Assembly (NCBI RefSeq): GCF_029714365.1
Contig: NZ_CP121660.1
Location: 1,922,001 to 1,986,000 of the forward strand
Source: Sinorhizobium terangae
GTDB taxonomy: Bacteria > Pseudomonadota > Alphaproteobacteria > Rhizobiales > Rhizobiaceae
DNA length: 64,000 bases
Direction of reading: 5' to 3'
Shown: one piece after another, positions 6,650 through 50,080 of the stretch
How the letters are laid out: every line of letters starts with the position of its first letter
Position numbering within the stretch: the stretch's first letter is position 1
The notes under the pieces: model-generated
What the model saw: only the letters and a program-made list of their open reading frames with translations
Told to the model about the DNA's origin: nothing
Databases searched by the model: none
Position numbers and translations under genes: made by a program

Positions 6650-6674
6650 GGAACAAACACCGTTCGACGGTGTT
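6650..6674 (+). promoter_or_regulatory. RpoE2/EcfG-type promoter for the DUF892 gene
   Basis: GGAAC at 6650-6654, a 16-bp spacer, then TGTT at 6671-6674, 45 bp upstream of the ATG. The spacer and -10 are also a 21-bp perfect inverted repeat (6655-6675: AAACACCGT, TCG, ACGGTGTTT), so a second regulator may act here. Confidence 0.65.
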
Positions 6675-6718
6675 TCCTTGGCGCTACCGCAAATCACGAC
6701 CCGAAAGGACGCCGAAAA

Positions 6719-7210
6719 ATGGCCAAGGAAAAAACGCTGAACGACCTCTTCCACGATACCCTGAAAGACATCTATTACGCCGAACGAAAGATCCTAAGGG
6801 CCTTGCCGAAGATGGCACGCGGCGCACAGACACCGGAACTCAAGGCCGCTTTCGAGAAGCACCGGGAACAGACGGAAACCCATGTCGAGCGGCTGCAGCA
6901 GGTCTTCGACATGATCGGCAAACGCGCACAGGGTAAAACCTGCGAGGCGATCGAAGGCATTATTGCCGAAGGTGAGGAGATCATGGAGGAGTTCAAGGGC
7001 ACTCCTGCACTCGACGCCGGCCTGATCTCCGCCGCGCAATCCGTCGAGCATTACGAAATCGCTCGCTACGGCACCTTGAAGACCTGGGCACAAACGATCG
7101 GTCTGAAGGACGCCGTATCGCTTCTCGACAAGACGCTGAAGGAAGAATTCGCGACCGACGAGAACCTGACGAAACTCGCCATGGCGCAAGCGAACAAGAA
7201 GGCCGCATGA
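6719..7210 (+). CDS. DUF892 (YciE/YciF-like) ferritin-like stress protein
   Basis: 163 residues, all-helical. The start MAKEKTLNDLFHDTLKDIYY and the spaced Glu/His pairs (YYAERKIL, KHREQTETHVERL, SVEHYEIARYGTL, EEFATDENL) are the DUF892 ferritin-like diiron signature. Homologues such as E. coli YciE/YciF are osmotic and general-stress proteins. The ATG is preceded by AAAGGA. It is monocistronic, under an RpoE2-type promoter at 6650-6674. A palindromic repeat element follows at once and could end transcription. Confidence 0.9.
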   Translation: MAKEKTLNDLFHDTLKDIYYAERKILRALPKMARGAQTPELKAAFEKHREQTETHVERLQQVFDMIGKRAQGKTCEAIEGIIAEGEEIMEEFKGTPALDAGLISAAQSVEHYEIARYGTLKTWAQTIGLKDAVSLLDKTLKEEFATDENLTKLAMAQANKKAA

Positions 7211-7233
7211 TCGTTCGCGGCGGCCGGCGCTAT

Positions 7234-7306
7234 TGCATGTTTCCGTAAATCGTAGCCGATTTAAGGATAAAAACATGCAGCGGTTCAAAGTGCTACAGCG
7301 TCATTT
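7234..7306 (+). repeat. Dispersed palindromic intergenic repeat, copy 1
   Basis: TGCATGTTT (7234-7242) pairs with AAACATGCA (7271-7279), and AAATCG pairs with CGATTT inside the arm. The tail TTCAAAGTGCTACAGCGTC completes the unit. The inverted copy at 58871-58926 shares the arm and tail (CGCTCTAGCGCTTTGAA reversed). It probably works as a stem-loop after the DUF892 gene. Confidence 0.6.
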
Positions 7307-7349
7307 GTGCGTCTGACAAGACGCGCGGCGCTGTAGACGCCGGTCGCCG

Positions 7350-7489
7350 TCACTCCACCTCCCGGAAGAAATCGATGAAGGCCTGGCGCGCGGCACGCGT
7401 CTGGCGACGGCGCGGATAATGGAGGCAGGGGCGTACCAATTCTCGAGCGCACGCTCAAGTCTGCCCGCGGCGACGTATTCGGCCACCCC
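7350..7489 (-). pseudogene. C-terminal fragment of a LysR-family regulator
   Basis: Read on the minus strand, the segment gives VAEYVAAGRLERALENWYAP. After a frame change near 7425 it gives LHYPRRRQTRAARQAFIDFF and REVE-stop. That is the usual end of LysR-family effector domains (LxYPSRRQxxxAxRAFIDFxR). Everything upstream of about 7489 (DNA-binding domain and most of the effector domain) is missing. Confidence 0.75.
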
Positions 7490-7686
7490 TCCGCCCCGTC
7501 CGCAGCTTCCCCGGCGTATCGGTCCTGATCGCGTCGTTCCCTTCTGCACGTCCATGTCGAACGCTAGCGTTCTTTGAACGGGTCGACCGGCGTTGGCCCG
7601 AGAGCCGGTCTCCGAGCGAAAAAAGTTTCCGAAGGCATGCCGGGCGGCCGGATTGAGCACTTTGGACGCCGGCTTAAGAGCTATGG

Positions 7687-7711
7687 AGAACAAAATCGTC
7701 TGTTGCTGGTT
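7687..7711 (+). promoter_or_regulatory. Near-consensus RpoE2-type promoter for csbD copy 1
   Basis: AGAAC (one mismatch to GGAAC), a 16-bp spacer and GGTT at 7708-7711, 37 bp before the csbD start. The second csbD copy has a perfect -35 element at the same relative place. Confidence 0.45.
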
Positions 7712-7747
7712 GGGCTCTACGGTTTAGTGAGTTCAGGAGGATCCACG

Positions 7748-7951
7748 ATGGATTGGAACCGCGTAGAAGGCAACTGGAAGCAGGCCAAAGGCAAGCTCAA
7801 GGAGCAGTGGGGCAAGCTCACTGATGACGATCTGGATCAAATCGCTGGCAACCGCGATCAGCTCGAAGGCAAGATCCAGGAACGCTACGGCATCGAACGC
7901 GACCGGGTGCGCCAGGACGTCAATGATTGGTGCAACCGCCAGTCCTGGTAA
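7748..7951 (+). CDS. CsbD-family stress protein, copy 1
   Basis: 67 residues beginning MDWNRVEGNWKQAKGKLKEQ, the CsbD signature, and ending VNDWCNRQSW. CsbD proteins are small, hydrophilic, general-stress-induced proteins of unknown mechanism. A strong ribosome site (CAGGAGG) sits 7 bp before the ATG. About four in five residues match copy 2 at 14638-14844, so this is a paralogous pair within 7 kb. Confidence 0.93.
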   Translation: MDWNRVEGNWKQAKGKLKEQWGKLTDDDLDQIAGNRDQLEGKIQERYGIERDRVRQDVNDWCNRQSW

Positions 7952-11222: not shown

Positions 11223-11248
11223 GGAACGAAAAGCAGCTCCCGCGTGTT
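11223..11248 (+). promoter_or_regulatory. RpoE2-type promoter for the YbhP-like gene
   Basis: GGAAC at 11223-11227, a 17-bp spacer, TGTT at 11245-11248, 29 bp before the ATG at 11278. It is interleaved with a promoter on the other strand. Confidence 0.6.
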
Positions 11249-11250
11249 CC
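11225..11250 (-). promoter_or_regulatory. RpoE2-type promoter for the YbhN-like gene
   Basis: On the minus strand GGAAC (11246-11250), a 17-bp spacer and CGTT (11225-11228), 26 bp before the ATG at 11198. Its -35 and -10 elements overlap those of the plus-strand promoter, so one short stretch serves both directions. Confidence 0.65.
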
Positions 11251-14575: not shown

Positions 14576-14601
14576 GGAACCCAAATGCGCCGTAGCGAGT
14601 T
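14576..14601 (+). promoter_or_regulatory. RpoE2-type promoter for csbD copy 2
   Basis: GGAAC at 14576-14580, a 17-bp spacer, AGTT at 14598-14601, 36 bp before the ATG at 14638. Confidence 0.6.
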
Positions 14602-14637
14602 CCAGCATTGGGCAAACAAAACGACTAGGAGATAGTC

Positions 14638-15755: not shown

Positions 15756-15780
15756 AACAAAGGAGGATCGAAGTTGTTCC
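15756..15780 (-). promoter_or_regulatory. RpoE2-type promoter for the DUF4142 gene
   Basis: Minus-strand GGAAC (15776-15780), a 16-bp spacer, TGTT (15756-15759), 28 bp before the ATG. Confidence 0.65.
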
Positions 15781-16391: not shown

Positions 16392-16416
16392 GGAACCTTC
16401 GGTGGTCACATCGGTT
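16392..16416 (+). promoter_or_regulatory. RpoE2-type promoter for the 57-aa membrane protein
   Basis: GGAAC at 16392-16396, a 16-bp spacer, GGTT at 16413-16416, 22 bp before the ATG at 16439. Confidence 0.7.
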
Positions 16417-16612: not shown

Positions 16613-16638
16613 GCCCTCTCTCGATTGGCTGTCTCGTC

Positions 16639-16725: not shown

Positions 16726-16819
16726 CTGCCAGCCGCCTTCTGTGGCCGAACTTTTCGGCGTTGCCGATGTTCCCTGCCTGAGATTGGCTACTGTTGCAGA
16801 GTGCGCCGGCGACACTGTC

Positions 16820-16844
16820 GGAACAAACGAAGTGCAAGCCGGTT
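16820..16844 (+). promoter_or_regulatory. RpoE2-type promoter for the 111-aa membrane-anchored protein
   Basis: GGAAC at 16820-16824, a 16-bp spacer, GGTT at 16841-16844, 27 bp before the ATG at 16872. Confidence 0.7.
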
Positions 16845-17588: not shown

Positions 17589-18353
17589 CTAAAGAGCGCC
17601 GACGCGTGGAACGGTTTCGTTCATGTACGGACGCTGCCCTCGCCGCACGAGATAGACCTCCCGTTCGGGATTGGCTTCGATGAGGAAGCCGGAACTGCGA
17701 AGCATCGCTTCCACACCAGCCCTGTTCGGAATGAACCAATTTGTAGGATCGTTCGAGAAACGGTGTTCGACAAAGAACAGCTTGGGATAGTCGGGGCGAT
17801 TGAAGACCTGCCACTCCTGAAAATTGTAGTCTTCCTCCACCGGCCCCACAGCATCCGCGCCGCGCTGCATGCACTGGAAGAGCATCTCCTCGCCGACGAC
17901 GTGCTCGTAGAGAAGGTCGAGAGCCAGCAGCGGATAGCGGAGATGGTAGAGAACACCCATAAAGAGAACCAGATCGAATTTCTCGCGCAATTGAGCAACG
18001 TCGTAGACTGACATCAGCCTGTATTCGATGTCGATCCCGTTCTGTGTGGCCGCGAATTTCGCTTGCCGCAAATAGTGAGGATCCGAATCGATGCCGACCA
18101 CGCGGCCGGCATTGCGGCGCTTCATTTCCTGCGCGTAGAACCCCGCATTGCAACCGATGTCGAGGACACTCCTGCCTTCGAGATCATCCGGAACGATATG
18201 TTTGAAAGCCTTCCATTTGATCGCGGGATAATCTCCGAGAAAGTGGTCGGGCGATGTCTCGACGCCACTGATCCGCATGTTGTGAAACCAGGGCCCCAAC
18301 GCTGCGATCTGATCCTCGATGGTCATGCAGTCTTGCATCTGGGCCATGATCAA
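17589..18353 (-). CDS. SAM-dependent methyltransferase of the glycan operon (TIGR04290-like)
   Basis: 254 residues. A class I methyltransferase core is visible: motif I VLDIGCNAGFYAQEMKRR, then VVGIDSDPHYLRQAKFA and FDLVLFMGVLYHLRYPL. N- and C-terminal blocks (WFHNMRISGVETSPDHFLGD, NFQEWQVFNRPDYPKLFFVE) recall the TIGR04290 family and, more distantly, CmoB. It is the last gene of the eight-gene operon and overlaps the UXS-like gene by 4 bp. Its acceptor is probably a sugar or lipid-linked glycan made by that operon, though this is inferred only from linkage. Confidence 0.85.
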   Translation of the reverse strand: MIMAQMQDCMTIEDQIAALGPWFHNMRISGVETSPDHFLGDYPAIKWKAFKHIVPDDLEGRSVLDIGCNAGFYAQEMKRRNAGRVVGIDSDPHYLRQAKFAATQNGIDIEYRLMSVYDVAQLREKFDLVLFMGVLYHLRYPLLALDLLYEHVVGEEMLFQCMQRGADAVGPVEEDYNFQEWQVFNRPDYPKLFFVEHRFSNDPTNWFIPNRAGVEAMLRSSGFLIEANPEREVYLVRRGQRPYMNETVPRVGAL

Positions 18354-19390
18354 AGATCCTGTGAGAGGACAGGTTGTTGCGGACGGCGGCGAGTGCGACC
18401 TGGCCCGCGCACGGCGCGCTGCTTCGCGAGCGTCCTCTGGAACCAGGCAATCGTATGTGACAGCCCGTCGTGCAGCGCCACTTTCGGTTGCCAGCCAAGC
18501 AGCGTTCTGGCCCTCGCGATATCCGGTCGGCGGCGCTGCGGGTCGTCCGGAGGCAAGGGCGCATGGACGATTGTCGAGGCGCTCGCGACCTTAGACAACA
18601 CCAGTTCGGCCAGCTCGCTGACCGTAAACTCCCCTGGATTTCCAAGGTTTATCGGAACACCCGGATTAGGCTGGCAATTCATCAGCTTGATCAATCCTTC
18701 GACGAGGTCGGATACATAGCAGAACGAACGCGTCTGCTCACCGCTGCCATATACCGTGAGCGGCTCGTTTTTCAGCGCCTGGACTATGAAGTTCGAGACG
18801 ATCCGGCCGTCATTGGGCTGCATATACGGACCGTAGGTATTGAAGATCCGAGCAACACGCACGTCCACGCTTCCGACCCTCAGATTGTCGAAGCACAAAG
18901 CCTCCGCCGCGCGCTTGCCTTCGTCATAGCATGCCCGCGGCCCGGTGCAGTTGACGTGCCCCCAGTAGTCCTCCTGCTGCGGGTGCTCCTCGGGATCGCC
19001 GTAGATCTCGCTCGTGGACGCCTGAAGGAAGACGGCTGCATGCCGCTCGGCGAGCCGTAGGAGGTTGCCCGTTCCCGTCACGCTGGTCATCATCGTGTGG
19101 ATCGGATCAGCCTGATATGACGGCGGCGAGGCGGGGCATGCCAGGTTATAGATTTGGTCGAGCGGCTCATCGACCGCGATATCGTCGCAGATATCCTGCT
19201 CGATTACCGTGAAATAGGGATTTCCGTTGAGACTGCGCACATTGGCAGGGGAACCAGTGAGATAGTTGTCGAGGCAGATCACCCGATTGCCGGCGTCCAG
19301 AAGCGCTGAACAGAGATGGGATCCGACAAAACCGGCCCCGCCGGCGACGAGGATGACCTTTCCTCGACGTGCTCGGTTTCTTCTTGCCAT
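18350..19390 (-). CDS. UDP-glucuronate decarboxylase (UXS)-like SDR
   Basis: 346 residues from the ATG at 19390. Extended-SDR motifs are GGAGFVGSHLCSALLDAGN, ASTSEIYGDP and YDEGKRAAE (catalytic Tyr-Lys). The blocks YNLACPASPPSYQADPIHT and RIFNTYGPYMQPNDGRIVSN are typical of UDP-xylose synthases, which turn UDP-glucuronate into UDP-xylose. The C-terminal 25 residues are unusually basic (GPGRTRRRPQQP). It lies 20 bp after a glycosyltransferase gene and overlaps the methyltransferase by 4 bp. It probably supplies UDP-xylose or a related sugar nucleotide to the operon. Confidence 0.85.
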   Translation of the reverse strand: MARRNRARRGKVILVAGGAGFVGSHLCSALLDAGNRVICLDNYLTGSPANVRSLNGNPYFTVIEQDICDDIAVDEPLDQIYNLACPASPPSYQADPIHTMMTSVTGTGNLLRLAERHAAVFLQASTSEIYGDPEEHPQQEDYWGHVNCTGPRACYDEGKRAAEALCFDNLRVGSVDVRVARIFNTYGPYMQPNDGRIVSNFIVQALKNEPLTVYGSGEQTRSFCYVSDLVEGLIKLMNCQPNPGVPINLGNPGEFTVSELAELVLSKVASASTIVHAPLPPDDPQRRRPDIARARTLLGWQPKVALHDGLSHTIAWFQRTLAKQRAVRGPGRTRRRPQQPVLSQDL

Positions 19391-19410
19391 GGGCCGTTCT
19401 CCTTTCGGTG

Positions 19411-20529
19411 TTAGACAGGAAATCTCCGTTCGGAGTGTCTCGTGGCGAGATTGGTTTTGGGTGCGACGGTTTCTATTGCTTCCACAAAGGTCGTGGCGCG
19501 AGCCGCTGCGCTGTGCGCCTGCACGACGCGCTGATGAGCACAATCGACATACGCCTGGCGCTGTTGTTCTGTGAGGTGCGTCAGTGCCACGACGACATCG
19601 CGGCTGTCCTGTGCGATGACGACAGCCTCTCCTGGCGGATAGAAGCTGTCGATGCCTTCCCACCAATCGCTGATCAAGGGCGTCCGGCACGCGGCCGCCT
19701 CGAAGAGCCGGACGCTCGGGGACCAACCGGCCGCCACCATGTCGGCACGTGTTATGTTCAGGGTGAATCGCTGGCGGCTGTAGAATTCAGCGTGCTCGGA
19801 AGGCGCCAGGTGCTCGATACGCACCACATTCTCCGGCCAGCGGATGTCAGCGGGATAGCTTGGTCCTGCAACGACAAAGCGCATCTCCGGCAATTGCCGC
19901 GCGGGTTCGAACAACAGACGTTCGAGAGTCGGCTGCCTATCACGGCTGAACGTGCCGAGGTAGCCAAGGTCCCATTCCCTTGGCGCGCCAGTGTTGCGAT
20001 AGAGGTCGAGATCGACGGCGCAGTAGAGTGCCACCGGGCGTCTCGCGGCAAACTCGCCTCGCAGCCGATCGAGCGTCCTGCCACCGGAAAAGGAAAAGTA
20101 GAGATCGAAGAGCGGAACCTGCCGACGGGCGAGATATTCCTCGTCGCCGCCGGCGAGCTTGGAGAGCGTCACGGGCGTGTCGATGTCGTAGAAACACAAT
20201 CGCTTGGGGGCGAGATCGACAACGGCGTCGATGAGTTTCACCCCTTCCGGCACATAAGACCCGATGACGACGGCATCAGCCCCGGCCAGCGTGCCAGCAT
20301 GCCGCGCGAGCAGTTCGTCGATGCTCCTATAGAGGACGAGGTCGCAAAAGTCCGGCGCAACCAGGTCGCGATGGCGGGCGTACCACGGTACGTCCCGTTC
20401 CAGGAAGGTCACTTTGTGCCCGGCTGCGTGGACACCGCGAAGCAATGCCCGATAGGTGGTCGCATGACCGTTGCCCCAGGACGAGGACAGCGAGAGGCCG
20501 AGGACGACGATATCGAGCGGACGGTTCAT
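19411..20529 (-). CDS. Glycosyltransferase, CgeB-like (third of three)
   Basis: 372 residues from the ATG at 20529. N-terminal LDIVVLGLSLSSSWGNGHAT and C-terminal GWSPSVRLFEAAACRTPLIS then DWWEGIDSFYPPGEA match the CgeB/spore-maturation-type GT-B family. The C-terminal E-x7-E-like donor site is represented by the RLFEAAAC segment. The start overlaps the preceding glycosyltransferase stop by 4 bp. It shares layout with 20526-21614 (Y/F-N-x-A start, W-E-G-I-(D/E) block), so the two are likely duplicates acting on successive sugars. Confidence 0.85.
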   Translation of the reverse strand: MNRPLDIVVLGLSLSSSWGNGHATTYRALLRGVHAAGHKVTFLERDVPWYARHRDLVAPDFCDLVLYRSIDELLARHAGTLAGADAVVIGSYVPEGVKLIDAVVDLAPKRLCFYDIDTPVTLSKLAGGDEEYLARRQVPLFDLYFSFSGGRTLDRLRGEFAARRPVALYCAVDLDLYRNTGAPREWDLGYLGTFSRDRQPTLERLLFEPARQLPEMRFVVAGPSYPADIRWPENVVRIEHLAPSEHAEFYSRQRFTLNITRADMVAAGWSPSVRLFEAAACRTPLISDWWEGIDSFYPPGEAVVIAQDSRDVVVALTHLTEQQRQAYVDCAHQRVVQAHSAAARATTFVEAIETVAPKTNLATRHSERRFPV

Positions 20530-21614
20530 TCGGCTGCCTCCATCTGGCGTGCCCGATTCCGCAAAACACGGTCCACTTCCTCGGCGCGATGCGCATAGGT
20601 GTGCTCGGCGAGCACGCGACCAAGCGCCCGCTTGCCGATCTCTTTGGCGCCGGCGGGCGTAAGCATGCGCATCAGTTCGGCGACGTCCTGTCCGTCTCTG
20701 GCGACCAGCACTTCCTCTCCGGGTGTAAGGAAGAGTTCGATGCCTTCCCATGCGTCGGTGATCAGGCAGGCGCCCGCCCCTGCCGCCTCGAAGACGCGGG
20801 TCGCCGGCGAGAAGCCATTCTCTGCCATGCTTGCGCGCGAAATGTTCAGGACGGCAGTCGGCGTCGCGTTGAACGCGTTGTGATCGGCGGTAGGAACGTG
20901 GCCTATGTGCCTGACATTCTGAGGCAAGGGCTTGTCGTCCCAGCCGGCTCCGCCTAGCAGGAACCGCCGATCTCCGACCTTGCCAGCGGGATCGAGGAAG
21001 AAGGCTTCCACCCGCGTCTCCCGATCCGGCAAGCGGTTGCCGAGGAAGGCAAGATCAGCAGCAAAACGCGGATCCGCGGGTACGGGGTGATGAGTCTCGG
21101 GATCGACGGCATTGTAGATGGGGACGCAGTCCCTGGCACCGATGGCACGATAGGACTCGACCACAGGATCGCCGCCGCCATAGGTCAGCACGAGATCCAG
21201 CGACGAAAGCGCGCGCCGGAGAGGATGATCGGGCGCGACCCTCAACTCCGCAAGTGTGGCGGGTGCATCGACGTCCCAGAAAATCTTCAGCGCAGCCGAA
21301 TTTGCCGACCCCATAATCTCCGCGAGCAGCAGGTCGTCCTCGAAGCCGACACCGCTTGCCTTGACAACGACATCGGCATCGACGGCTTCCGCCGCGACAC
21401 GCTTCAATGCCGCGACGGTTCCCTGATAAACCACAACCCTGCACCAGTCCGGCACCTCGATATCGCGGTATTTCTGCCTGTCGTAGACGTCCGGCTCATA
21501 AAAAGTGATTTCATACCCGCGCGCCGCAAGCGCACGAAGCAACCCGCGATAGTAAGTTGCCGCACCGTTCCAATAGGCCGAAAGGAGGCTCGATCCATAA
21601 AAAGCGACCCTCAT
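20526..21614 (-). CDS. Glycosyltransferase, CgeB-like (second of three)
   Basis: 362 residues from the ATG at 21614 (MRVAFYGSSLLSAYWNGAAT). GT-B fold: N-terminal acceptor domain, then a donor domain with NGFSPATRVFEAAGAGACLI then TDAWEGIELFLTPGEEVLV. It has 4-bp overlaps with both neighbours. Donor and acceptor are unknown. Similarity to 19411-20529 suggests gene duplication inside the operon. Confidence 0.85.
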   Translation of the reverse strand: MRVAFYGSSLLSAYWNGAATYYRGLLRALAARGYEITFYEPDVYDRQKYRDIEVPDWCRVVVYQGTVAALKRVAAEAVDADVVVKASGVGFEDDLLLAEIMGSANSAALKIFWDVDAPATLAELRVAPDHPLRRALSSLDLVLTYGGGDPVVESYRAIGARDCVPIYNAVDPETHHPVPADPRFAADLAFLGNRLPDRETRVEAFFLDPAGKVGDRRFLLGGAGWDDKPLPQNVRHIGHVPTADHNAFNATPTAVLNISRASMAENGFSPATRVFEAAGAGACLITDAWEGIELFLTPGEEVLVARDGQDVAELMRMLTPAGAKEIGKRALGRVLAEHTYAHRAEEVDRVLRNRARQMEAAE

Positions 21615-22744
21615 ATCGCGACCTCCCTTGATGTGATGCGATCGTCCTCGGCCTTTTTCGGCCGGTACAAAGCAACGATGTCGAGAAGTTCGTCGACGCG
21701 ATGGCCGCAGGTATGGCGTGCCCGGATCGTTGCCAAGCCGGAGGCGGCCAGTTCCTGTGCGAAGGCTGGCTCTGAGAGCACCTGGCGCAGCAGGCGGGTC
21801 ATTTCCTTGCCGTTGCCGGCAAAAAGGAAATCGGTGCCGGGGCGGAAGAGACCTTCGACATCGTTCCATGGCGCCGAGATCAGCGGAATGCCGCAGGCAA
21901 GCGCTTCGAAGACCCGGATGGTCGGTATGCCCGGCAAGGCTTCGACATAGGGCCGCCGGGGAATATGCACTGTCGCCCGATGCTGTGCGAAAGCCCAGGG
22001 AACGGCAGCGTTCGCGAGCCAGCCGCCATAGTCTATTCGGGCCGCACGTAACGCCTTGCGCGCGGCGTCGGGATATCTCACGCCCCGCACGGTTGCCGTA
22101 AGCTTCAGTTGTCGCGCAGGCTCGATGAGGAAGGACGAGAGCTCGGCGCTGCGCTCATCATCGCCCCAATTACCGATCCAGACGAGATCGCCTTTCTTGT
22201 CGGCGTGCGGAATTGGATGGAACAGTGACGTGTCGGCGGCTTCATGCCAGGTGAAGACGTGTCTTCCCCAGCCCGCGCTGAGATACCGTTCGCGGAGCGC
22301 CTCGCCGAAGGCCAGGACAAAGTCGTATCCGGAAAGGTCGAGCCGGGCGACAGCGTGCTTGGCGGTGACCGCGCGATGATGTGTATCGTGAAAGGCGAGC
22401 GTGAAGCTGCCGCCCGCGTGACGGATGCGGCCGAGCCCGGCGATCAGCTCGGGATCTGACCATTCATGCACGACGACCAGATCGGCCTCGCTGACAACAG
22501 ACTCGTGGTCGAAATCGGCGCCATAGATCTCGACGCGCAGATCGGGAAAGTGCTTGCGGAACGCTACAATCGGCCCGACACCCTGATCCGCGATCAGGTT
22601 GAGGCGGCTCCAGGAATCGCGCGGTTCGAGCGCCAGCGCCTCGTGACCCCGTTGCAGCAGTTCCCGCATGACACCACGCAGGAAGTGGGCGTTGCCGTGG
22701 TTCCAATCGGAAACAAGTGAATGGGTGTAGAAGACAAATCGCAT
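21611..22744 (-). CDS. Glycosyltransferase, CgeB-like (first of three)
   Basis: 377 residues (MRFVFYTHSLVSDWNHGNAH). The DHESVVSEADLVVVHEWSDP and PGIPTIRVFEALACGIPLIS then APWNDVEGLFRPGTDFLF blocks are GT-B/CgeB type. It differs more from the other two than they do from each other. It lies 3 bp after the GT4 gene stop and overlaps the next glycosyltransferase by 4 bp. Confidence 0.85.
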   Translation of the reverse strand: MRFVFYTHSLVSDWNHGNAHFLRGVMRELLQRGHEALALEPRDSWSRLNLIADQGVGPIVAFRKHFPDLRVEIYGADFDHESVVSEADLVVVHEWSDPELIAGLGRIRHAGGSFTLAFHDTHHRAVTAKHAVARLDLSGYDFVLAFGEALRERYLSAGWGRHVFTWHEAADTSLFHPIPHADKKGDLVWIGNWGDDERSAELSSFLIEPARQLKLTATVRGVRYPDAARKALRAARIDYGGWLANAAVPWAFAQHRATVHIPRRPYVEALPGIPTIRVFEALACGIPLISAPWNDVEGLFRPGTDFLFAGNGKEMTRLLRQVLSEPAFAQELAASGLATIRARHTCGHRVDELLDIVALYRPKKAEDDRITSREVAI

Positions 22745-22747
22745 CGG

Positions 22748-23899
22748 TCACTCCGCAGCCGTCAATCGAGGAGATCCGCGCATGGCTTGCCGGTAGGCGG
22801 CAAGCACCGCGTCGCGATGGGCTTCGATGGAGAAGTCGCTCGACCGCAGTCGTGCCCGCTGCCCGAGCTCGGCCCTCAGTACCGCATCCTCCGCCAAAGC
22901 GTTTACCGTATTCGCGATGGCAACCGGATCACCAGGATCGGCAAACATGGCAGCGCCGTCCCAAAGCTCGCGATAGGTGTCGATGTCTGCAAGCACCAAG
23001 GCTGCGCCGGCGCACGCCGCCTCCAGCGCAACAAGTCCGAACGGTTCGTAAATCGACGGTGAGACGACGATCGCGGCTTTCGACATCAATGCCAAGGTCT
23101 GATCGTGACTGAGTTCTCCGCGATAATCGGCGTGTTGAATCGCCAAACGCTCGCGGTTTGGGCCATCGCATGCCCCGGCCATCAGTACCGGCCAGCGGAT
23201 ATACGCAGCCGCCTGGTCCAGCACCGCGCCATTTTTGCCCTCGTCCCACCACCGGCCTGCGGCAAAAACAAAATTCTGCTTGGGCATGACAGGATACGAG
23301 TTTCGGCTGCCATTATGGACGACCTTGAGATTGTCGATCTGGCCATAGCAGCGCACGAGGCCCGCAGCATGGCTGGAACTCGGGGCCAGAACCACGTCGG
23401 CGCGGTCGAAGCCCACCCGGTTCAGCCGTTTTTGCCAAAACCACTCCCGCGGCAAACCGGAAGCACGCACGGTATCGAACCAGGTGGCGACGCATGAATG
23501 CGAGACCACAACGACAGGCGTTTGCGCCGGAAGACCGGCCGCCTGCGAAGGCAGATTCAGATGCAGCAGATCGACCGAATGCCGGAGCGAAAGTTCGGTC
23601 AGTAGGTCCGCCACCACATCGAGCTCACTTTCTTCGCCGGCCATCCAATCGAGCGGCGCAGCAAACCATTCGAGCGTGCCGATGCGCGTAGCCTCGCGCC
23701 GCTGATGCGTGGAAGGCTCTGGGCCGAAGCCTATGAAAAGCGTTTCCACCCCAGCAGCTCGAATGGCATCGGAGAGGTCCATGGCGTAGCGCCACACGCC
23801 GCCCACCGCATCGACGCTCATGATGATCCGCCGCGGCAGCCGACCGCCGGTGCCGTCATGACCGAGAGTGCCGAGGGCGGAACCGGCGCGATCGCTCAT
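22748..23899 (-). CDS. GT4-family glycosyltransferase
   Basis: 383 residues from the ATG at 23899, which makes the usual 4-bp overlap with the epimerase stop. Typical GT4 features: DAVGGVWRYAMDLSDAIRAA near the start, FVFAAGRWWDEGKNGAVLDQ in the hinge, and SPSIYEPFGLVALEAACAGA (E-x7-E retaining motif). It probably transfers a hexose from a nucleotide sugar with retention of configuration. Acceptor unknown. Confidence 0.9.
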   Translation of the reverse strand: MSDRAGSALGTLGHDGTGGRLPRRIIMSVDAVGGVWRYAMDLSDAIRAAGVETLFIGFGPEPSTHQRREATRIGTLEWFAAPLDWMAGEESELDVVADLLTELSLRHSVDLLHLNLPSQAAGLPAQTPVVVVSHSCVATWFDTVRASGLPREWFWQKRLNRVGFDRADVVLAPSSSHAAGLVRCYGQIDNLKVVHNGSRNSYPVMPKQNFVFAAGRWWDEGKNGAVLDQAAAYIRWPVLMAGACDGPNRERLAIQHADYRGELSHDQTLALMSKAAIVVSPSIYEPFGLVALEAACAGAALVLADIDTYRELWDGAAMFADPGDPVAIANTVNALAEDAVLRAELGQRARLRSSDFSIEAHRDAVLAAYRQAMRGSPRLTAAE

Positions 23900-25017
23900 G
23901 CGGTGATCCTCTTTGTTTGATCGCGGGCGCTGCGAACCCCGCCCCAATCTTCCAGAAGCCAGTCATGCAGATCGCGCAGTCCCGCGCGCCACGGCGTGCG
24001 AGCCTTCCAGCCGACCGCATCGGCAAGCGCGCGCGTATCGGCGACAAAAAACAGTTGGTCGCCAGCCCGCCAGTCGTGCTTCTCTGTCGAGAGCGGGCGG
24101 CCCACCAGGAGTTCGATCTCGCTGAGGACCTGGGAGATGCTGACGGCATTCTCCGGCCCGCCGCCGAGATTGAAGGGCCGCCCACTGAGACGATCGATCG
24201 AGTTGAGAAGTGCTCGGTAGGCGGCGACCGCATCTCTGACATGGAGGATGTCACGGACCTGCTTTCCGTCGCCATAGATCGATATCGACTCACCCGCGAG
24301 CGCGCGAATGAGGAAATGCGCGACCCATCCCTGATCCTCGGTGCCGAACTGCCTTGGACCGTAGATGCAACTCATCCGTAGCACGGCCGTCGGAAGCCGG
24401 AACGACCTCGCGTAGTCCAGCACGTATTGGTCCGCCACACCTTTCGAGCAGCCATAGGGAGTGCAGAAATCGAGCGGCTGCGCCTCGCTGACGCCTTGGT
24501 TGCGCAACGCCCGGTCAGTGGGCAGATGTCGTGCCCCGATCTCGTTCAACTGCAGGTGCGCCAGCGCGCCGTATACCTTGTTGCTGCTGGCGAAAATGAC
24601 AGGCGCCCGGCACCCGGCCATACGCGCGGCTTCGAGCACATTGAGCGTGCCGCGCGCATTCGTCTCGAAATCGTCGATCGGCTGCTGCAGGCTGGTCGTC
24701 ACGGCTGTCTGTGCCGCGAGATGAAAGACCGCCTTGGCATCCTTGAAGACCGGCTCTATTGCGGTGAACTCGCGCACATCGGCGAGTACGGGGTGAACGG
24801 CGCCGCGGTAAGTGTCCACCAACCATTCAAGGTTTCGCTCGACGCCGGCGCGACTGAGGTTGTCGAGAACGATCACTTCCTCGCCGTCCCGGAGGAAACT
24901 ATCGGCGAGATTGCAGCCGACAAAGCCGCTGCCGCCCACCACGACGATTACTGTCGTCTTTCTGGAAAGGCTGGGTGTGGCCAGGCGAGCACGCCTGCCC
25001 TGAGAACCGGCGCTCAC
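23896..25017 (-). CDS. NAD-dependent sugar epimerase (CDP-paratose 2-epimerase-like SDR)
   Basis: 373 residues from a GTG at 25017, chosen because it overlaps the previous stop by 4 bp (GTGA) like its neighbours. GGSGFVGCNLADSFLRDGEE is the NAD loop. DNLSRAGVERNLEWL is a block seen in CDP-paratose/tyvelose-type epimerases. The active-site Tyr-Lys is in TPYGCSKGVADQYVLDYAR. It likely interconverts sugar nucleotides for the operon. Confidence 0.85.
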   Translation of the reverse strand: MSAGSQGRRARLATPSLSRKTTVIVVVGGSGFVGCNLADSFLRDGEEVIVLDNLSRAGVERNLEWLVDTYRGAVHPVLADVREFTAIEPVFKDAKAVFHLAAQTAVTTSLQQPIDDFETNARGTLNVLEAARMAGCRAPVIFASSNKVYGALAHLQLNEIGARHLPTDRALRNQGVSEAQPLDFCTPYGCSKGVADQYVLDYARSFRLPTAVLRMSCIYGPRQFGTEDQGWVAHFLIRALAGESISIYGDGKQVRDILHVRDAVAAYRALLNSIDRLSGRPFNLGGGPENAVSISQVLSEIELLVGRPLSTEKHDWRAGDQLFFVADTRALADAVGWKARTPWRAGLRDLHDWLLEDWGGVRSARDQTKRITA

Positions 25018-26163: not shown

Positions 26164-26188
26164 AACAAGCCTCGGTAGCAAATGTTCC
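26164..26188 (-). promoter_or_regulatory. RpoE2-type promoter of the glycan operon
   Basis: Minus-strand GGAAC (26184-26188), a 16-bp spacer, TGTT (26164-26167), 43 bp before the first epimerase ATG. It would place eight polysaccharide-type genes under general-stress control. Confidence 0.7.
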
Positions 26189-26307
26189 TTCATCCATGAC
26201 TTCTTCTTCTTTGTTGTTCTTCATTGATCCCTTGCAGCGGGACGTTGTCCGTCCGAAGGTACAAACCTCTCACTTGCGTGAGTGTTCCACGCGAACCGAG
26301 AGCAGCA

Positions 26308-26332
26308 GGAACAAAAGCTGCAACATCAAGTT
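26308..26332 (+). promoter_or_regulatory. RpoE2-type promoter facing the dehydrogenase pair
   Basis: GGAAC at 26308-26312, a 16-bp spacer, AGTT at 26329-26332. It lies 121 bp before the ATG at 26454, further away than the others, in the 333-bp divergent region shared with the glycan operon. Confidence 0.5.
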
Positions 26333-30319: not shown

Positions 30320-30344
30320 GGAACCATTCCGTCGCGCGCTGGTT
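30320..30344 (+). promoter_or_regulatory. RpoE2-type promoter for inositol-3-phosphate synthase
   Basis: GGAAC at 30320-30324, a 16-bp spacer, GGTT at 30341-30344, 39 bp before the ATG at 30384. Confidence 0.7.
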
Positions 30345-34429: not shown

Positions 34430-35480
34430 CGATCAGATAGTTCCACGATTGGCTGCGAAGCTCGGCAAGTCGGTCAGCGATGGCTGGGTCCGGCACGTCG
34501 CCAAGAATGGTGTCGTAGCGCGCTGAGGGGGTCGTCCGCGACACCACGTGTCGTTGAGCACCGACGAGGCGCGCGAGGTCGCGAACCTTGTTGGAACGGT
34601 AGTCGGACAGGACGCAGGCAAACGGCTTGGCGTTGAGAAGCGCGAATGCGCAGCCGTGGAAGAAGTTGGTTGCGACCGCGTCAGCACCGGCGATAAAACC
34701 AGCGAACTCGTAGGGTCCGCCATCGAGCCACTGTTCGTCCGCCCATTCGTTCCGATAGCCTATGCTGACGAGACGAAGCGAGCGTGATGCTGTCCAGCGG
34801 CGAACCCCCTGTTGAAACCAGGACGGGAACGAGTGACCGTAAACGGCAACGTAGGGACGGCGATGGGTAACGGCTGGCCAAGTCGCGAGCGTCTCTGGGA
34901 ATTGCAGGCATGGATCGAGGACAAGCGTCGCCTCGCGTCCAAGTGCCCTTTCGATGATCGTCTTTGAATTCTCGTCGCGCACCGAAATGGCATGAAATTT
35001 CCGCAGTTTATCTGCCCAGTAGCTCTCCAGCCCGTTCGCGGCGGGATGACTTCCGAACGTCGCTGCGTAGGAAACGATCTTCTTTGCGGATATCCCCTCC
35101 CCATAGAAGAGCGGGACCCCGCCGTACCAGGGATGGCGAAAGTTCCAGACTTCGTCGCTACCGACGACGACCAGGTCGCAATCGTCAAGCGCAACCGGCT
35201 CGTCAAGCGCAAACGCTGCACTGAGCGGAAATGAGGCGAAAGCGTTCACGAATTTCCTGATCTTGGAGGCGTAAAGCGACCTGTCTGGTCGGGTAGTCCT
35301 CGCGGGCAGCAGCGGCTGCAGTGCGCAACGCCACTCGGCACGGCTGACGCGGTCGGAACGATGATCGAGGACGACAGGTTTGGCGCCCAGCGAGCGAAGG
35401 CCCTGCACGAGGCAGTGTGCCTGCCAAAACGACCCGTAGTTGATGCAGCGGTGAAACGTCAGGACACCAAGCTTTGCCAA
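34416..35480 (-). CDS. Polysaccharide pyruvyltransferase-family protein
   Basis: 354 residues. Typical family sequence: GVLTFHRCINYGSFWQAHCL at the start, DLVVVGSDEVWNFRHPW, and near the C-terminus FIAGADAVATNFFHGCAFAL (conserved His). These enzymes add pyruvate ketals from phosphoenolpyruvate to sugars. It is the first gene of a two-gene unit with the FrhB-like gene, under an RpoE2-type promoter. It probably decorates the product of the neighbouring glycan operon. Confidence 0.88.
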   Translation of the reverse strand: MAKLGVLTFHRCINYGSFWQAHCLVQGLRSLGAKPVVLDHRSDRVSRAEWRCALQPLLPARTTRPDRSLYASKIRKFVNAFASFPLSAAFALDEPVALDDCDLVVVGSDEVWNFRHPWYGGVPLFYGEGISAKKIVSYAATFGSHPAANGLESYWADKLRKFHAISVRDENSKTIIERALGREATLVLDPCLQFPETLATWPAVTHRRPYVAVYGHSFPSWFQQGVRRWTASRSLRLVSIGYRNEWADEQWLDGGPYEFAGFIAGADAVATNFFHGCAFALLNAKPFACVLSDYRSNKVRDLARLVGAQRHVVSRTTPSARYDTILGDVPDPAIADRLAELRSQSWNYLIDVLD

Positions 35481-35504: not shown

Positions 35505-35529
35505 AACCAGCCGGGCCAGGGGAGGTTCC
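35505..35529 (-). promoter_or_regulatory. RpoE2-type promoter for the pyruvyltransferase/FrhB pair
   Basis: Minus-strand GGAAC (35525-35529), a 16-bp spacer, GGTT (35505-35508), 24 bp before the ATG at 35480. Confidence 0.7.
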
Positions 35530-38072: not shown

Positions 38073-38097
38073 AACCTATGCGACGATGCTTGGTTCC
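38073..38097 (-). promoter_or_regulatory. RpoE2-type promoter for the catalase
   Basis: Minus-strand GGAAC (38093-38097), a 16-bp spacer, GGTT (38073-38076), 38 bp before the ATG. Confidence 0.75.
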
Positions 38098-38214: not shown

Positions 38215-38239
38215 GGAACTTTGAACGCAATCAGCGGTT
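38215..38239 (+). promoter_or_regulatory. RpoE2-type promoter for the cytochrome oxidase operon
   Basis: GGAAC at 38215-38219, a 16-bp spacer, GGTT at 38236-38239, 41 bp before the GTG start of subunit II. It is divergent from the catalase promoter 117 bp away. Confidence 0.7.
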
Positions 38240-38280
38240 CCTTCGCGGATTGGTTCACGCGTTGAAAGACGGACATCGTC

Positions 38281-41804: not shown

Positions 41805-41806
41805 CG

Positions 41807-42196: not shown

Positions 42197-42309
42197 GGCG
42201 AATTTCGCTCCTCTCACGCGTAACGCTTTTGGTGGCCTATCTCGTTGGGGGATTGACGCTTCTCGCTCGCCATCTGGCGCCAGGCGATCAGAGGGAGGCC
42301 GAGGCCTGA
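42193..42309 (+). CDS. 38-residue single-helix microprotein of the oxidase operon
   Basis: 38 residues starting MRRISLLSRVTLLVAYLVGG. One membrane helix with a positive N-terminus, then a polar tail (RHLAPGDQREAEA). It is joined to both neighbours by overlaps (ATGA upstream at 42193-42196, TGATG at 42307-42311), which argues strongly for translation. Size and position suggest a small oxidase subunit, like the tiny helices found in cbb3 and bd oxidases. The function is inferred. Confidence 0.7.
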   Translation: MRRISLLSRVTLLVAYLVGGLTLLARHLAPGDQREAEA

Positions 42310-44090: not shown

Positions 44091-44115
44091 AACCGCCGTT
44101 GCTTTTGATTGTTCC
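44091..44115 (-). promoter_or_regulatory. RpoE2-type promoter for the DUF2267 gene
   Basis: Minus-strand GGAAC (44111-44115), a 16-bp spacer, GGTT (44091-44094), 33 bp before the ATG. Confidence 0.72.
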
Positions 44116-44136: not shown

Positions 44137-44162
44137 GGAACATTATCGGGACGGGAACGGTT
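44137..44162 (+). promoter_or_regulatory. RpoE2-type promoter for the 95-aa gene
   Basis: GGAAC at 44137-44141, a 17-bp spacer, GGTT at 44159-44162, 30 bp before the ATG. The -10 overlaps a second GGAAC. Confidence 0.65.
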
Positions 44163-44192
44163 CCGAGACTCCGCGAGCGAGGACCTCCCGAA

Positions 44193-46684: not shown

Positions 46685-46718
46685 ATTGGATCCTCCCGCT
46701 CTAACGAGGTCACGAAGG

Positions 46719-46743
46719 AACCGGCAGAAGCTGAACATGTTCC
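46719..46743 (-). promoter_or_regulatory. RpoE2-type promoter for the SDR/alcohol dehydrogenase pair
   Basis: Minus-strand GGAAC (46739-46743), a 16-bp spacer, GGTT (46719-46722), 34 bp before the ATG. Confidence 0.72.
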
Positions 46744-48501: not shown

Positions 48502-48855
48502 GCCGCAGATGCCTTCAATCGTTCGGCTGTTCTATTCCGAACGCGCGAGCTGAGAAAAGGATGCTCAATTCAACGGGATGTTCCTGGCGCGGAGACAAGG
48601 CCGATCGATGGAATCGGCGGGCTTCAAGTGAAGAACTCAGGCGTGGACAGTGTCAGGAGATGCGGGCTGCAGCATGCACCTGATCGGTGGGCTGGCCTTC
48701 GTGCACTTTTCGCAGCGGCGTGCCAGAACGCGCATTCGGGCCTTCCCCGTTGGCCGCGGCAGTGCCTTTCGGAACTATCTTACCGCATCTTACGCGCCAA
48801 AGGGATGCGACGCTGCCCCGCAACAACGCGGGGCTTCTTCGTTGGTTCGGGCTCC
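48502..48855. other. Intergenic stretch with a GC-rich hairpin
   Basis: About 350 bp without a recognised gene. It contains a 7-bp stem (GCCCCGC 48815-48821, GCGGGGC 48828-48834) just downstream of the minus-strand exported-protein gene. On the minus strand no T-run follows, so termination is uncertain. Confidence 0.45.
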
Positions 48856-49176
48856 TCAGCAGCCCGTTGTATCGCGTCCCTCGCTGGGGTTCATCTTTTT
48901 CTTGGCGAGACCGGGCGGGCAATCTTTGTTCGGGGCGTCATCCTGAGCGTCCCCAGCTGCGCTGTTATCATTGCTCTTCACGCTGCCGGTGGTCTCGCTG
49001 GAATAGGGCTTGTCCCCGCGTTGCCCCGCCTTGCAATTCGGGCTGCCCGGATCGCATTTTTCCATATTCATGGAAGGCTGATCCCCGGTCGCGCTCGTGC
49101 CGGACTGCGCGGAAGCAGTCAGGCTGGCCGCCGAGAACAGCGCTGCCGCTAAGGCAGCCGATATGGCAAGTTTCAT
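48856..49176 (-). CDS. Small exported protein (106 aa)
   Basis: 106 residues from the ATG at 49176. Signal peptide MKLAISAALAAALFSAASLT, then ASAQ and a polar mature part with four cysteines (MEKCDPGSPNCKAG; KDCPPGLAKKK; final GC). The cysteines suggest disulphides in the periplasm. GGAG precedes the ATG. An RpoE2-type promoter lies upstream, and the leader contains an 8-bp hairpin. No family was recognised. Confidence 0.75.
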   Translation of the reverse strand: MKLAISAALAAALFSAASLTASAQSGTSATGDQPSMNMEKCDPGSPNCKAGQRGDKPYSSETTGSVKSNDNSAAGDAQDDAPNKDCPPGLAKKKMNPSEGRDTTGC

Positions 49177-49198
49177 ATCTAAGCTCCATTTGTTGCTT

Positions 49199-49220
49199 CC
49201 AAGCGTTCTCTTACGCTTGG
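49199..49220 (-). other. 5'-leader hairpin of the exported-protein mRNA
   Basis: CCAAGCGT (49199-49206) and ACGCTTGG (49213-49220) form a perfect 8-bp stem with a 6-base loop, placed between the -10 (49232-49235) and the start codon. It would sit at or near the 5' end of the transcript. Confidence 0.5.
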
Positions 49221-49231
49221 CCCGTCCAACG

Positions 49232-49256
49232 AACCTCCCGCTTCCGGAAATGTTCC
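49232..49256 (-). promoter_or_regulatory. RpoE2-type promoter for the 106-aa exported protein
   Basis: Minus-strand GGAAC (49252-49256), a 16-bp spacer, GGTT (49232-49235), 55 bp before the ATG. Confidence 0.7.
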
Positions 49257-49606
49257 GGCCGGAACAACCAGCGATACCGCGCAAGAGCAGGTAAGCCCGC
49301 CACCGCGGCTTGAGCGCCAGGGAGTTGCTCACGCGCCGCCTAAATGATCAGTGCCTGTTCGTGTTCTTGCTTTCGCGTGGCTCTTCACGTCAGGGAGGAC
49401 GCCATCTCCTGCCGAGATATGCTCAGCAAGATGACGAGACTTGATCCGGCTTGATGGCCGCCAAGCGAAGGAGGCCCGCGACTGCTCGAGAGCCTCTTCG
49501 GCATGTCGATAAGCCAGGACTCCGGACGGCCATGGCTGCCGCCCGCGATCCGCTCGCCGTGAGATGGTCCTCCATGTCGAACAGGCTGCCTTCCACGAAG
49601 ACGCTC
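49257..49606. other. Intergenic stretch without a recognised gene
   Basis: About 350 bp downstream of the 133-residue exported-protein gene. Short open frames exist on both strands but lack ribosome sites and recognisable products. Confidence 0.4.
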
Positions 49607-50008
49607 TCACTTTGCTCCAATCAGGTCCTTGATCTCGCCCAGCTTCTTCATGCATCCCTGCTCATCGCCGGCTTCGGCCATTTTCTTGGCTTCTGCCTCG
49701 AGCTGGCTTGGCTTGTCGCCACTTTCACCGGTCCGCTTGCCGGTGACCTGCTCCTGATGAGGCGAAGTCGCTTTCGTCTGGGCGCCGGTTGATCCCGTTA
49801 TTTCCGTTCCGACAGCCTTCTTCTGCTTGCCGGGCATGACTTCTTCCTGGTGCTTCGTAACAGGCGCGCCGGACCCGCTGCCGGCTGCGCCCGTTTCTGC
49901 GGAAACGATAGCTGGCCCGAGTTTCTCGAGTTCTTGACGGCAGTCCGCAAATGCCGGCACAGCCAGCAGAATGGGAAGGGCGGTGGCTGCCATGAGACGT
50001 ATCAACAT
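49607..50008 (-). CDS. Exported Lys/Glu-rich small protein (133 aa)
   Basis: 133 residues from the ATG at 50008, chosen for the signal peptide (MLIRLMAATALPILLAVPAF, cleaved after ALA-like FA). The mature part has one Cys pair (DCRQELEKLG; EQGCMKKLGEIKDLIG) enclosing a low-complexity Gly/Ser/Lys/Gln middle. The N- and C-terminal segments may close with a disulphide. An RpoE2-type promoter lies 47 bp upstream. No family was recognised. Confidence 0.75.
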   Translation of the reverse strand: MLIRLMAATALPILLAVPAFADCRQELEKLGPAIVSAETGAAGSGSGAPVTKHQEEVMPGKQKKAVGTEITGSTGAQTKATSPHQEQVTGKRTGESGDKPSQLEAEAKKMAEAGDEQGCMKKLGEIKDLIGAK

Positions 50009-50055
50009 TGTTCTTCTCGCTCGCTGTTTGACGCAATGCGTCCGTTGCTGAGCCA

Positions 50056-50080
50056 AACAAAGCTCTACGTGAAGAGTTCC
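50056..50080 (-). promoter_or_regulatory. RpoE2-type promoter for the 133-aa exported protein
   Basis: Minus-strand GGAAC (50076-50080), a 16-bp spacer, TGTT (50056-50059), 47 bp before the ATG. It is the right-most of the series. Confidence 0.65.

What the first reader, a model, noticed from the sequence alone, without database searches (positions are those of the whole stretch)
6650..50080. Twenty-two RpoE2/EcfG-type promoters across 43 kb
GGAAC-N16/17-NGTT (three with a weaker element) lies 22-121 bp before the starts of most transcription units here. Simple counting for GGAAC plus NGTT at two spacings on both strands of 64 kb gives about four by chance, anywhere. Targets include catalase, CsbD, DUF892, DUF4142 and DUF2267, which are usual stress genes, but also an oxidase, inositol synthase and a glycan operon. 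The match to the alphaproteobacterial general-stress consensus is from established knowledge.
Basis: partly seen in the sequence, partly recalled or inferred. Interest (0 to 1): 0.85.

Follow-up and report, generated by a model that had tools for sequence, protein, structure and literature searches.

The report
Stress-promoter island on a rhizobial chromid
A 43-kilobase stretch of a soil bacterium's second chromosome is packed with the start signals of the bacterium's general stress response, and relatives keep that packing, often near a spare stress switch, which suggests what the spare switch may be for.

Summary
GGAAC-N16/17-NGTT occurs 26 times (21 places) in the window against 2.7 expected; 25 of 26 are intergenic and only spacings 16 and 17 are enriched. 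Thirty-eight regularly spaced 20-kb stretches of the genome (760 kb) hold 13 intergenic sites. Nineteen transcription units have an exact site 22-121 nt upstream, most kept in related species. phyR, nepR and ecfG are present. So this is a general-stress regulon island. New: (1) its promoters avoid the canonical CGTT -10 (C in 1 of 25, against 30 of 55 chromosomal sites, p=6e-6); (2) an accessory sigma, EcfG2 (RpoE5 type), lies in another dense site cluster on the same replicon, and in 7 of 10 genomes of other genera that have it lies within 11 kb of this island's 587-aa gene; (3) EcfG2-like neighbourhoods in eight further genomes hold 47 sites, against 4 at eight other spacings. Whether RpoE2, EcfG2 or both read the island is unproven; several results speak against EcfG2 alone.

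The parts
6650..6674 (+). EcfG-type promoter of DUF892 gene 6719-7210
   Evidence: exact motif, 44 nt before start; site in 3 of 3 orthologues
11223..11250 (.). Dyad GGAAC-N18-GTTCC: divergent promoters of 10257-11198 (-, LPG_synthase_TM) and 11278-12021 (+, Exo_endo_phos)
   Evidence: exact on both strands, 26 and 29 nt from starts; dyad kept in G024 at 74-82% protein identity
14463..14487 (-). Promoter of 86-aa ORF 14177-14437 (and, by inference, the downstream isochorismatase 13561-14106)
   Evidence: exact, 25 nt; only the same-species orthologue was found
14576..14603 (.). Dyad; promoter of CsbD gene 14638-14844 (+) and a second, distal site for 14437 (-)
   Evidence: exact both strands, 36 and 140 nt; CsbD site in 3 of 6
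15756..15780 (-). Promoter of DUF4142 gene 15200-15727
   Evidence: exact, 28 nt; site in 4 of 4 matches, one of them only 34% identical
16392..16416 (+). Promoter of 57-aa ORF 16439-16612
   Evidence: exact, 22 nt; site in 7 of 12
16749..16773 (-). Promoter before a cytochrome P450 gene remnant
   Evidence: exact; relative G028 has a full-length 416-aa P450 (PF00067) after its site
16820..16844 (+). Promoter of 111-aa ORF 16872-17207
   Evidence: exact, 27 nt; site in 12 of 12 relatives
26164..26188 (-). Proximal promoter of glycan operon 17589-26120
   Evidence: exact, 43 nt; site in 12 of 12
26264..26288 (-). Distal promoter of glycan operon
   Evidence: exact, 143 nt
26308..26332 (+). Promoter of ADH / GFO_IDH_MocA genes 26454-28464
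   Evidence: exact, 121 nt; site in 12 of 12
30320..30344 (+). Promoter of inositol-phosphate synthase operon 30384-33092 (operon inferred)
   Evidence: exact, 39 nt; site in 12 of 12; sites at the matching place in Rhizobium, Mesorhizobium and Pseudaminobacter loci
35505..35529 (-). Promoter of polysaccharide pyruvyl transferase / FrhB-like genes 32996-35480
   Evidence: exact, 24 nt; site in 7 of 12
38073..38097 (-). Promoter of long catalase 35917-38034
   Evidence: exact, 38 nt; site in 3 of 3 (a partial match in G028 was dropped by coverage)
38215..38241 (.). Dyad; promoter of COX2/COX1 oxidase operon 38281-43403 (+, operon inferred) and distal site for catalase (-)
   Evidence: exact both strands, 41 and 182 nt; COX2 site in 5 of 7, the two misses being 41-43% identical; dyad kept in G032, G028, G016, G029, G018
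44091..44115 (-). Promoter of DUF2267 gene 43617-44057
   Evidence: exact, 33 nt; site in 4 of 4 (a partial match in G026 was dropped by coverage)
44137..44164 (.). Dyad; promoter of 95-aa ORF 44193-44480 (+) and distal site for DUF2267 (-)
   Evidence: exact both strands, 30 and 81 nt; site in 5 of 6
46717..46743 (.). Dyad; promoter of SDR 45695-46684 (-); no recognised gene for the + reading
   Evidence: 34 nt from SDR start; site in 9 of 9 relatives; dyad in all 10 genomes with the SDR, window included
49232..49256 (-). Promoter of 73-aa ORF 48968-49189 (signal-peptide-like start, my reading)
   Evidence: exact, sequence and ORF read
50056..50080 (-). Promoter of 133-aa ORF 49607-50008
   Evidence: exact, 47 nt; site in 4 of 4
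17589..26120 (-). Glycan operon: methyltransferase, three NAD epimerases, four glycosyltransferases
   Evidence: Pfam; present in all 12 fetched relatives
28491..30254 (-). 587-aa conserved protein without Pfam or NCBIfam match; marker used for linkage; no exact site of its own
35355..35380 (+). Exact match inside coding sequence 34416-35480, antisense; probably chance

Best explanation
Window 6.65-50.1 kb is a general-stress regulon island on the chromid of a Sinorhizobium close to S. terangae. About twenty transcription units are each read by RNA polymerase carrying an EcfG-group (ECF15) sigma factor, released from NepR by phosphorylated PhyR under stress. Shown here by sequence: the motif, its position, its conservation, the presence of the regulators, the concentration in clusters, the non-CGTT -10, and closeness of the accessory EcfG2 to such clusters in several genera. 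Inferred: that EcfG1 (RpoE2) is the master and switches on ecfG2 from its own GGAAC-N16-CATT promoter, and that EcfG2 then shares in reading the island's [G/T/A]GTT promoters. The dyads would fire in both directions.
For: Enrichment 26 against 2.7, only at spacings 16/17, 25 of 26 intergenic; distances 22-121 nt. In 12 fetched relatives the pooled counts by spacing are 230 at 16 and 50 at 17, against 10-34 at each other spacing, also where flanking genes differ. Orthologous sites are retained. phyR-ecfG-HWE kinase locus with a NepR match there and a second elsewhere. In S. meliloti the RpoE2 regulon is large and includes rpoE5 (PMC3616915, section 17 read), whose promoter listed in PMC6180224 (section 6 part 1 read) has the same CATT form as ecfG2 here. 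EcfG2 clade support 98/98; linkage; site clusters around EcfG2.
Against: No transcription start or mutant data exist for this genome. CGTT, the published R. etli EcfG1 -10, is nearly absent. Of twelve S. meliloti locus tags that I guessed for this region, only one was found in print, in one paper, for an ABC transporter gene, so no paper seen confirms RpoE2 dependence of these genes. RpoE5 overexpression in S. meliloti gave a single target (PMC6180224, passages), with the authors' caution that anti-sigmas were present. The order-wide pattern count did not visibly separate genomes with and without EcfG2.
Confidence: 0.85

Rival explanations
1. RpoE2 (EcfG1) alone reads the island; the non-C -10 is a weak, tuned version that keeps basal expression low. 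EcfG2 linkage only reflects that both are stress genes on secondary replicons.
For: In Sphingopyxis granuli the GSR -10 is flexible, with TGTT, CATT and GGTT the most frequent boxes after CGTT, and point changes between CGTT and CATT or TGTT showed CGTT to be stronger in vitro (PMC7083833, section 10 read and passages; GGTT was not among the changes seen). The S. melonis motif is GGAAC-N17-20-GTT without the C (PMC6599016, passages). RpoE5 overexpression gave one target (PMC6180224, passages). The M. jarvisii EcfG2 stretch has C at 8 of 11. In A. fabrum the EcfG2 stretch is not enriched for sites.
Against: It does not predict why one island is 1 of 25 C while chromosomal sites are 30 of 55, why relatives' islands keep this (38 of 254 C, against 57 of 141 at control spacings, 11 related genomes, coding matches included), nor why the difference also touches the two bases after GTT (partly due to dyads).
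Confidence: 0.45
2. EcfG2 (RpoE5) is the main sigma of the island and has its own -10 preference, [G/T/A]GTT followed by CC or NG, while EcfG1 prefers CGTT. The cascade is EcfG1 to ecfG2 (CATT/CGTT promoter) to island.
For: for the -10 class; EcfG2 within 11 kb of the 587-aa gene in 7 of 10 genomes of Mesorhizobium, Pseudaminobacter, Rhizobium and Tianweitania that have it, and within 30 kb in 4 Sinorhizobium genomes; a CATT or CGTT promoter before ecfG2 in 9 of 11 loci read. R. etli EcfG2 has a partly separate regulon whose motif the authors could not find, and each sigma prefers its own promoter in E. coli (PMC3892343, sections 17-19 read).
Against: EcfG2-like neighbourhoods in 8 further genomes have mixed first bases, C 17 of 47; the own-genome cluster holding ecfG2 has C at 7 of 20; M. 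jarvisii 8 of 11. In S. meliloti plasmids ecfG2 and INO1 are about 0.5 Mb apart and RpoE5 gave one target; in G009 and G017 (3-4 contigs) they lie on different contigs. R. etli katG, EcfG2-dependent, has no exact site upstream, nor has R. etli ecfG2.
Confidence: 0.35
3. The five dyads GGAAC-N17/18-GTTCC are operators of a dimeric regulator, not paired promoters.
For: Perfect inverted repeats; the SDR dyad is kept in 10 of 10 genomes though the sequence on its gene-less side diverges.
Against: Most halves sit upstream of a gene in the right direction; any GTTCC after the -35 yields a dyad automatically; frequency is only 5 of 21 places against a 9.4% base rate, binomial p=0.04; in the whole genome there are 16 dyads, five of them in the window, against 19 for the control.
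Confidence: 0.05
4. Chance or compositional artefact.
For: None beyond the 2.7 expected matches.
Against: Shuffles, spacing control and conservation.
Confidence: 0.01

Closest known systems
Sinorhizobium meliloti RpoE2 regulon (ECF15)
   Same: Genus, EcfG-group sigma, two rsiA/rsiB pairs; rpoE5 under a promoter of CATT form (PMC3616915 section 17, PMC6180224 section 6 part 1). S. meliloti 1021 pSymB carries the glycan/inositol core with sites before it (11 matches in 47 kb).
   Different: No island of this density was seen described in the passages read; the -10 first base is almost never C here. The published RpoE2 motif tables (supplements) were not available.
Rhizobium etli EcfG1/EcfG2 (RpoE4 / PF00052)
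   Same: Plasmid-borne second EcfG; its p42f stretch holds ferritin-like, DUF4142 and Crp/Fnr genes with 15 sites in 50 kb, C at 3 of 15.
   Different: The published EcfG1 motif is GGAAC-N16-CGTT; an EcfG2 motif was not found by the authors (PMC3892343 section 19).
Sphingopyxis granuli TFA GSR promoters
   Same: Flexible -10 including GGTT and TGTT, two EcfG paralogues (PMC7083833).
   Different: Another order-level lineage (recalled); non-consensus CATT and TGTT boxes proved weaker there.
Agrobacterium fabrum pAt EcfG2-like locus
   Same: EcfG2-like sigma (48% identity) beside catalase, general stress and ferritin-like genes.
   Different: Only 4 sites in 40 kb, not more than at other spacings.

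Membership tests
EcfG (ECF15) general-stress promoters, broad definition | -35 GGAAC | tested here: met
   26 exact matches against 2.7 expected
EcfG (ECF15) general-stress promoters, broad definition | fixed spacing to GTT | tested here: met
   only 16 and 17 enriched among 12-21
EcfG (ECF15) general-stress promoters, broad definition | short distance to gene start, conserved in relatives | tested here: met
   22-121 nt; retention in relatives
EcfG (ECF15) general-stress promoters, broad definition | PhyR, NepR and EcfG in the genome | tested here: met
EcfG (ECF15) general-stress promoters, broad definition | mapped start 5-12 nt after -10, lost in sigma mutant | not testable with these tools
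   needs RNA
R. etli EcfG1 motif GGAAC-N16-CGTT | C before GTT | tested here: not met
   1 of 25 intergenic site-strands
EcfG2 / RpoE5 regulon | sigma of the EcfG2 clade present and linked | tested here: met
   clade 98/98; a match of 81% identity or more in 32 of 33 genus genomes, own included; within 11 kb in 7 of 10 other genomes that have it; not close in S. meliloti plasmids and several other genomes
EcfG2 / RpoE5 regulon | own -10 preference distinct from EcfG1 | tested here: inconclusive
   the island differs, EcfG2-like neighbourhoods elsewhere are mixed, order-wide count uninformative
EcfG2 / RpoE5 regulon | transcription depends on EcfG2 | not testable with these tools
   needs mutants or in vitro transcription

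The most novel reading that the evidence does not exclude
The accessory, secondary-replicon EcfG2 (RpoE5 / R. etli PF00052) has its own -10 recognition, [G/T/A]GTT followed by CC or NG, and commands a stress-glycan island in which nearly every promoter is of that class. Its long-missing regulon is this island, and new stress genes accrete next to it, keeping promoter class rather than gene content.
Probability: 0.3. Interest if true: 0.75.

Novelty: new variant of a known kind. Interest (0 to 1): 0.56.

Why it matters
Half of the completed alphaproteobacterial genomes were said in 2013 to carry two or more EcfG copies, with the extra ones not satisfactorily explained (PMC3892343, abstract). 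A conserved cluster of about twenty uniform promoters, close in several genera to one extra copy and deviating at the -10, makes that question directly testable. It also shows a bacterial regulon concentrated in a replicon territory whose gene content turns over while its promoter class stays.

Tried and rejected
Genome-wide counting with the reversed pattern as control was too blunt: coding sequence swamps it. Order-wide counting of GGAACN{16,17}GGTTC in 199 genomes against EcfG2 presence (21 of 199, own included) showed no separation by eye; no statistic was computed; inconclusive. Dyads as a general selected feature were not supported genome-wide. R. etli katG as a test of the EcfG2 motif failed: no exact site upstream; it lies next to a gene annotated as a hydrogen-peroxide-inducible activator, so its dependence may be indirect. 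The idea that every EcfG2 neighbourhood is non-C was rejected (M. jarvisii 8 of 11 C). The R. etli P450 next to EcfG2 gave no match in the window or the relatives. Sauviac et al. 2007 is not held. Rfam and tRNA scans of the window were empty.

Selection caveats. Of the C1 stretches, two were picked for nepR, and many because one search listed forward matches there; these serve the base composition but not the density figure, which uses only the 38 stretches at regular steps. Gene calls are by my own codon-score script, and starts may be off. G032 in the counts is of the same species as the window. Retention counts leave out orthologue matches covering under half of the query. For linkage I searched 18 of the 33 non-Sinorhizobium loci's genomes; 10 of the 18 have a hit in the EcfG2 clade, and weaker hits without a locus were not placed in the tree. 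Contig identity rests on the genome assignment and equal contig lengths. The four Mesorhizobium cases at 9.2-9.4 kb look like one inherited arrangement. The eight stretches are 8 of the 20 other genomes listed, mostly the best-scoring, skipping two of a genus already taken; their sigma (50-57% identical) was not placed in the tree. The p values are uncorrected for 40 tests. One search includes coding and chance matches.


Full report
What was checked. The pattern GGAACN{16,17}NGTT matches 26 times in the window, at 21 places, with 2.7 expected and at most 7 in 100 shuffles. All lie between 6650 and 50080. Twenty-five are intergenic, and of the spacings 12 to 21 only 16 (19 matches) and 17 (7 matches) stand out. 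Eighteen of 36 starts examined have an exact site, the nearest at 22 to 121 nt; a nineteenth unit is the 73-aa ORF 48968-49189. The first-stage count of 22 with three weaker ones agrees within definition.

Comparison with the rest of the genome. The window is C2:1922001-1986000 of a 6.63-Mb genome in three contigs of 3.97, 2.09 and 0.57 Mb. The whole genome has 412 matches, against 385 for the reversed pattern. Thirty-eight 20-kb stretches at regular steps hold 13 intergenic matches in 760 kb, about one per 64 kb, against 25 in the window. The window is not alone: C2:1820684-1842451 holds 20 intergenic matches in 22 kb.

Who it is. The 587-aa protein of 28491-30254 is 93% identical to one in Sinorhizobium terangae. 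It is found in 26 of 33 genus genomes and in thousands of proteins elsewhere, without Pfam or NCBIfam family.

Conservation. In 12 fetched genus genomes (G032 of the same species) the block 16.4-35.5 kb, with glycan operon, ADH/MocA, inositol-phosphate synthase and pyruvyl transferase, is present in all, while many flanking genes differ. Yet every one of these 54.6-60-kb regions has 14 to 32 matches; pooled, 230 at spacing 16 and 50 at 17, against 10 to 34 at each other spacing. Sites before the 111-aa ORF, the glycan operon, the ADH and INO1 are found in 12 of 12; SDR 9 of 9; DUF2267, DUF4142 and the 133-aa ORF 4 of 4; catalase and DUF892 3 of 3; 95-aa ORF 5 of 6; COX2 5 of 7. Lower: pyruvyl transferase 7 of 12, 57-aa ORF 7 of 12, CsbD 3 of 6. 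So the promoter class stays while neighbours turn over.

Regulators. C1 has PhyR, an EcfG (EcfG1, 184 aa), a NepR match and an HWE kinase together at 2.62 Mb, and a second NepR match with a PhyR-like gene (my reading) near 0.38 Mb. A second EcfG-group sigma, 41% identical, lies at C2:1827714-1828235, inside the second site cluster. It falls in a clade supported 98/98 with proteins of Mesorhizobium, Rhizobium, Pseudaminobacter and Tianweitania, in a tree of 34 rows whose program warned of long branches; the same query finds R. etli CFN 42 p42f, the replicon of the EcfG2 described in PMC3892343. In the genus 32 of 33 genomes have a match of 81% or more; the exception is 70% complete. S. meliloti plasmids carry it at about 85% identity, so I equate it with RpoE5 (SMb21484), whose promoter is listed as GGAAC...CATT (PMC6180224, section 6 part 1 read); here the gene is preceded by GGAAC-N16-CATT.

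A different -10. At intergenic sites the base before GTT is C in 1 of 25 in the island, 30 of 55 on C1, 7 of 20 in the second cluster, and 23 of 82 at control spacings; island against C1 p=6e-6; island against the control rate p=0.003. Of 40 positions compared between island and C1, the base before GTT (p=3e-4), the two bases after it (p=0.008, 0.002) and weakly one more before it (p=0.03) differ, uncorrected. Ten of the 25 site-strands belong to dyads, which inflate the C after GTT; without dyads, 82 site families over 13 genomes show G 0.48, T 0.21, C 0.23, A 0.07 before GTT, and G 0.57 two bases after. In relatives' regions C is 38 of 254, against 57 of 141 at control spacings.

Linkage. 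Among 18 genomes from other genera, 10 have a hit in the EcfG2 clade; in 7 it lies on the same contig within 11 kb of the 587-aa gene, in one of them 0.2 kb away; in the two Rhizobium LC145/LCM4573-type genomes and Tianweitania it does not. In Sinorhizobium, 12 genomes have both on one contig: 4 within 30 kb, 5 within 125 kb, 3 much further; in the rest they lie on different contigs, which in G009 and G017 (3-4 contigs) means different replicons or nearly so. In two S. meliloti plasmids listed in both searches they are about 0.5 Mb apart. Ten-kb stretches around EcfG2-like genes in 8 order-level genomes hold 47 matches at spacings 16/17 and 4 at eight other spacings together. There the first base is mixed: C 17, G 17, T 10, A 3. 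The A. fabrum stretch is not enriched (4 matches in 40 kb), and the M. jarvisii one has C at 8 of 11.

Reading. EcfG-type promoters are secure; a regulon island is secure in sequence terms. Which sigma reads it is open. The S. granuli work shows that GGTT and TGTT boxes belong to GSR promoters elsewhere and that CGTT beats CATT and TGTT in point-change tests (PMC7083833, section 10 and passages), which favours weak RpoE2 promoters. R. etli work shows that EcfG2 has a partly separate regulon without known motif (PMC3892343, sections 3, 17, 18, 19, 23 read), which favours a second specificity. RpoE5 overexpression in S. meliloti gave one target, with the stated caution about anti-sigmas (PMC6180224). 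I give the RpoE2-only reading 0.45 and the EcfG2-led reading 0.35.

Literature scope. Ten searches of open-licence PMC papers gave listings in which I saw no description of this island or of an EcfG2 -10; of those papers I read sections or passages of PMC3892343, PMC6599016, PMC7083833, PMC6180224, PMC3616915, and passages only of PMC8877191, PMC12542648, PMC8857273, PMC10880074 and PMC3188799. Subscription papers and supplements were not available.

Noticed in passing
window 16582-16773 (-): A cytochrome P450 gene is reduced to a short remnant of its two ends in this species, while its EcfG-type promoter remains; a relative (G028) has a full-length 416-aa P450.
   Followed up: partly
window 28491-30254 (-): 587-aa protein family with 4173 matches among 8000 scored candidates, no Pfam or NCBIfam family and no credible solved relative (best E 0.084).
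   Followed up: partly
window 30384-31487 (+): Inositol-3-phosphate synthase whose best NCBIfam model is the mycothiol INO1 one, 546 bits, under its 638 cut-off; plasmid relatives include 22 Streptomyces records.
   Followed up: no
L008 / C2:1820684-1842451: Second dense cluster of EcfG-type sites around ecfG2, beside predicted small proteins, CBS-domain-like and carbohydrate-enzyme-like genes (names are my reading).
   Followed up: partly
L140 2004-2348 (-): Opposite strand downstream of ecfG2 encodes a 114-aa ORF with a NepR-like end by my reading; it resembles what PMC6180224 reports opposite SMb21687, but it was not among the NepR family matches.
   Followed up: no
window 46717-46743: GGAAC-N17-GTTCC dyad before the SDR kept in all 10 genomes with that gene, though the sequence beyond its other side diverges and no gene is recognised there.
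   Followed up: partly
window 50243-53353 (-): 1036-aa fusion of an APH-type phosphotransferase, an M23 peptidase and a class-III aminotransferase domain.
   Followed up: no
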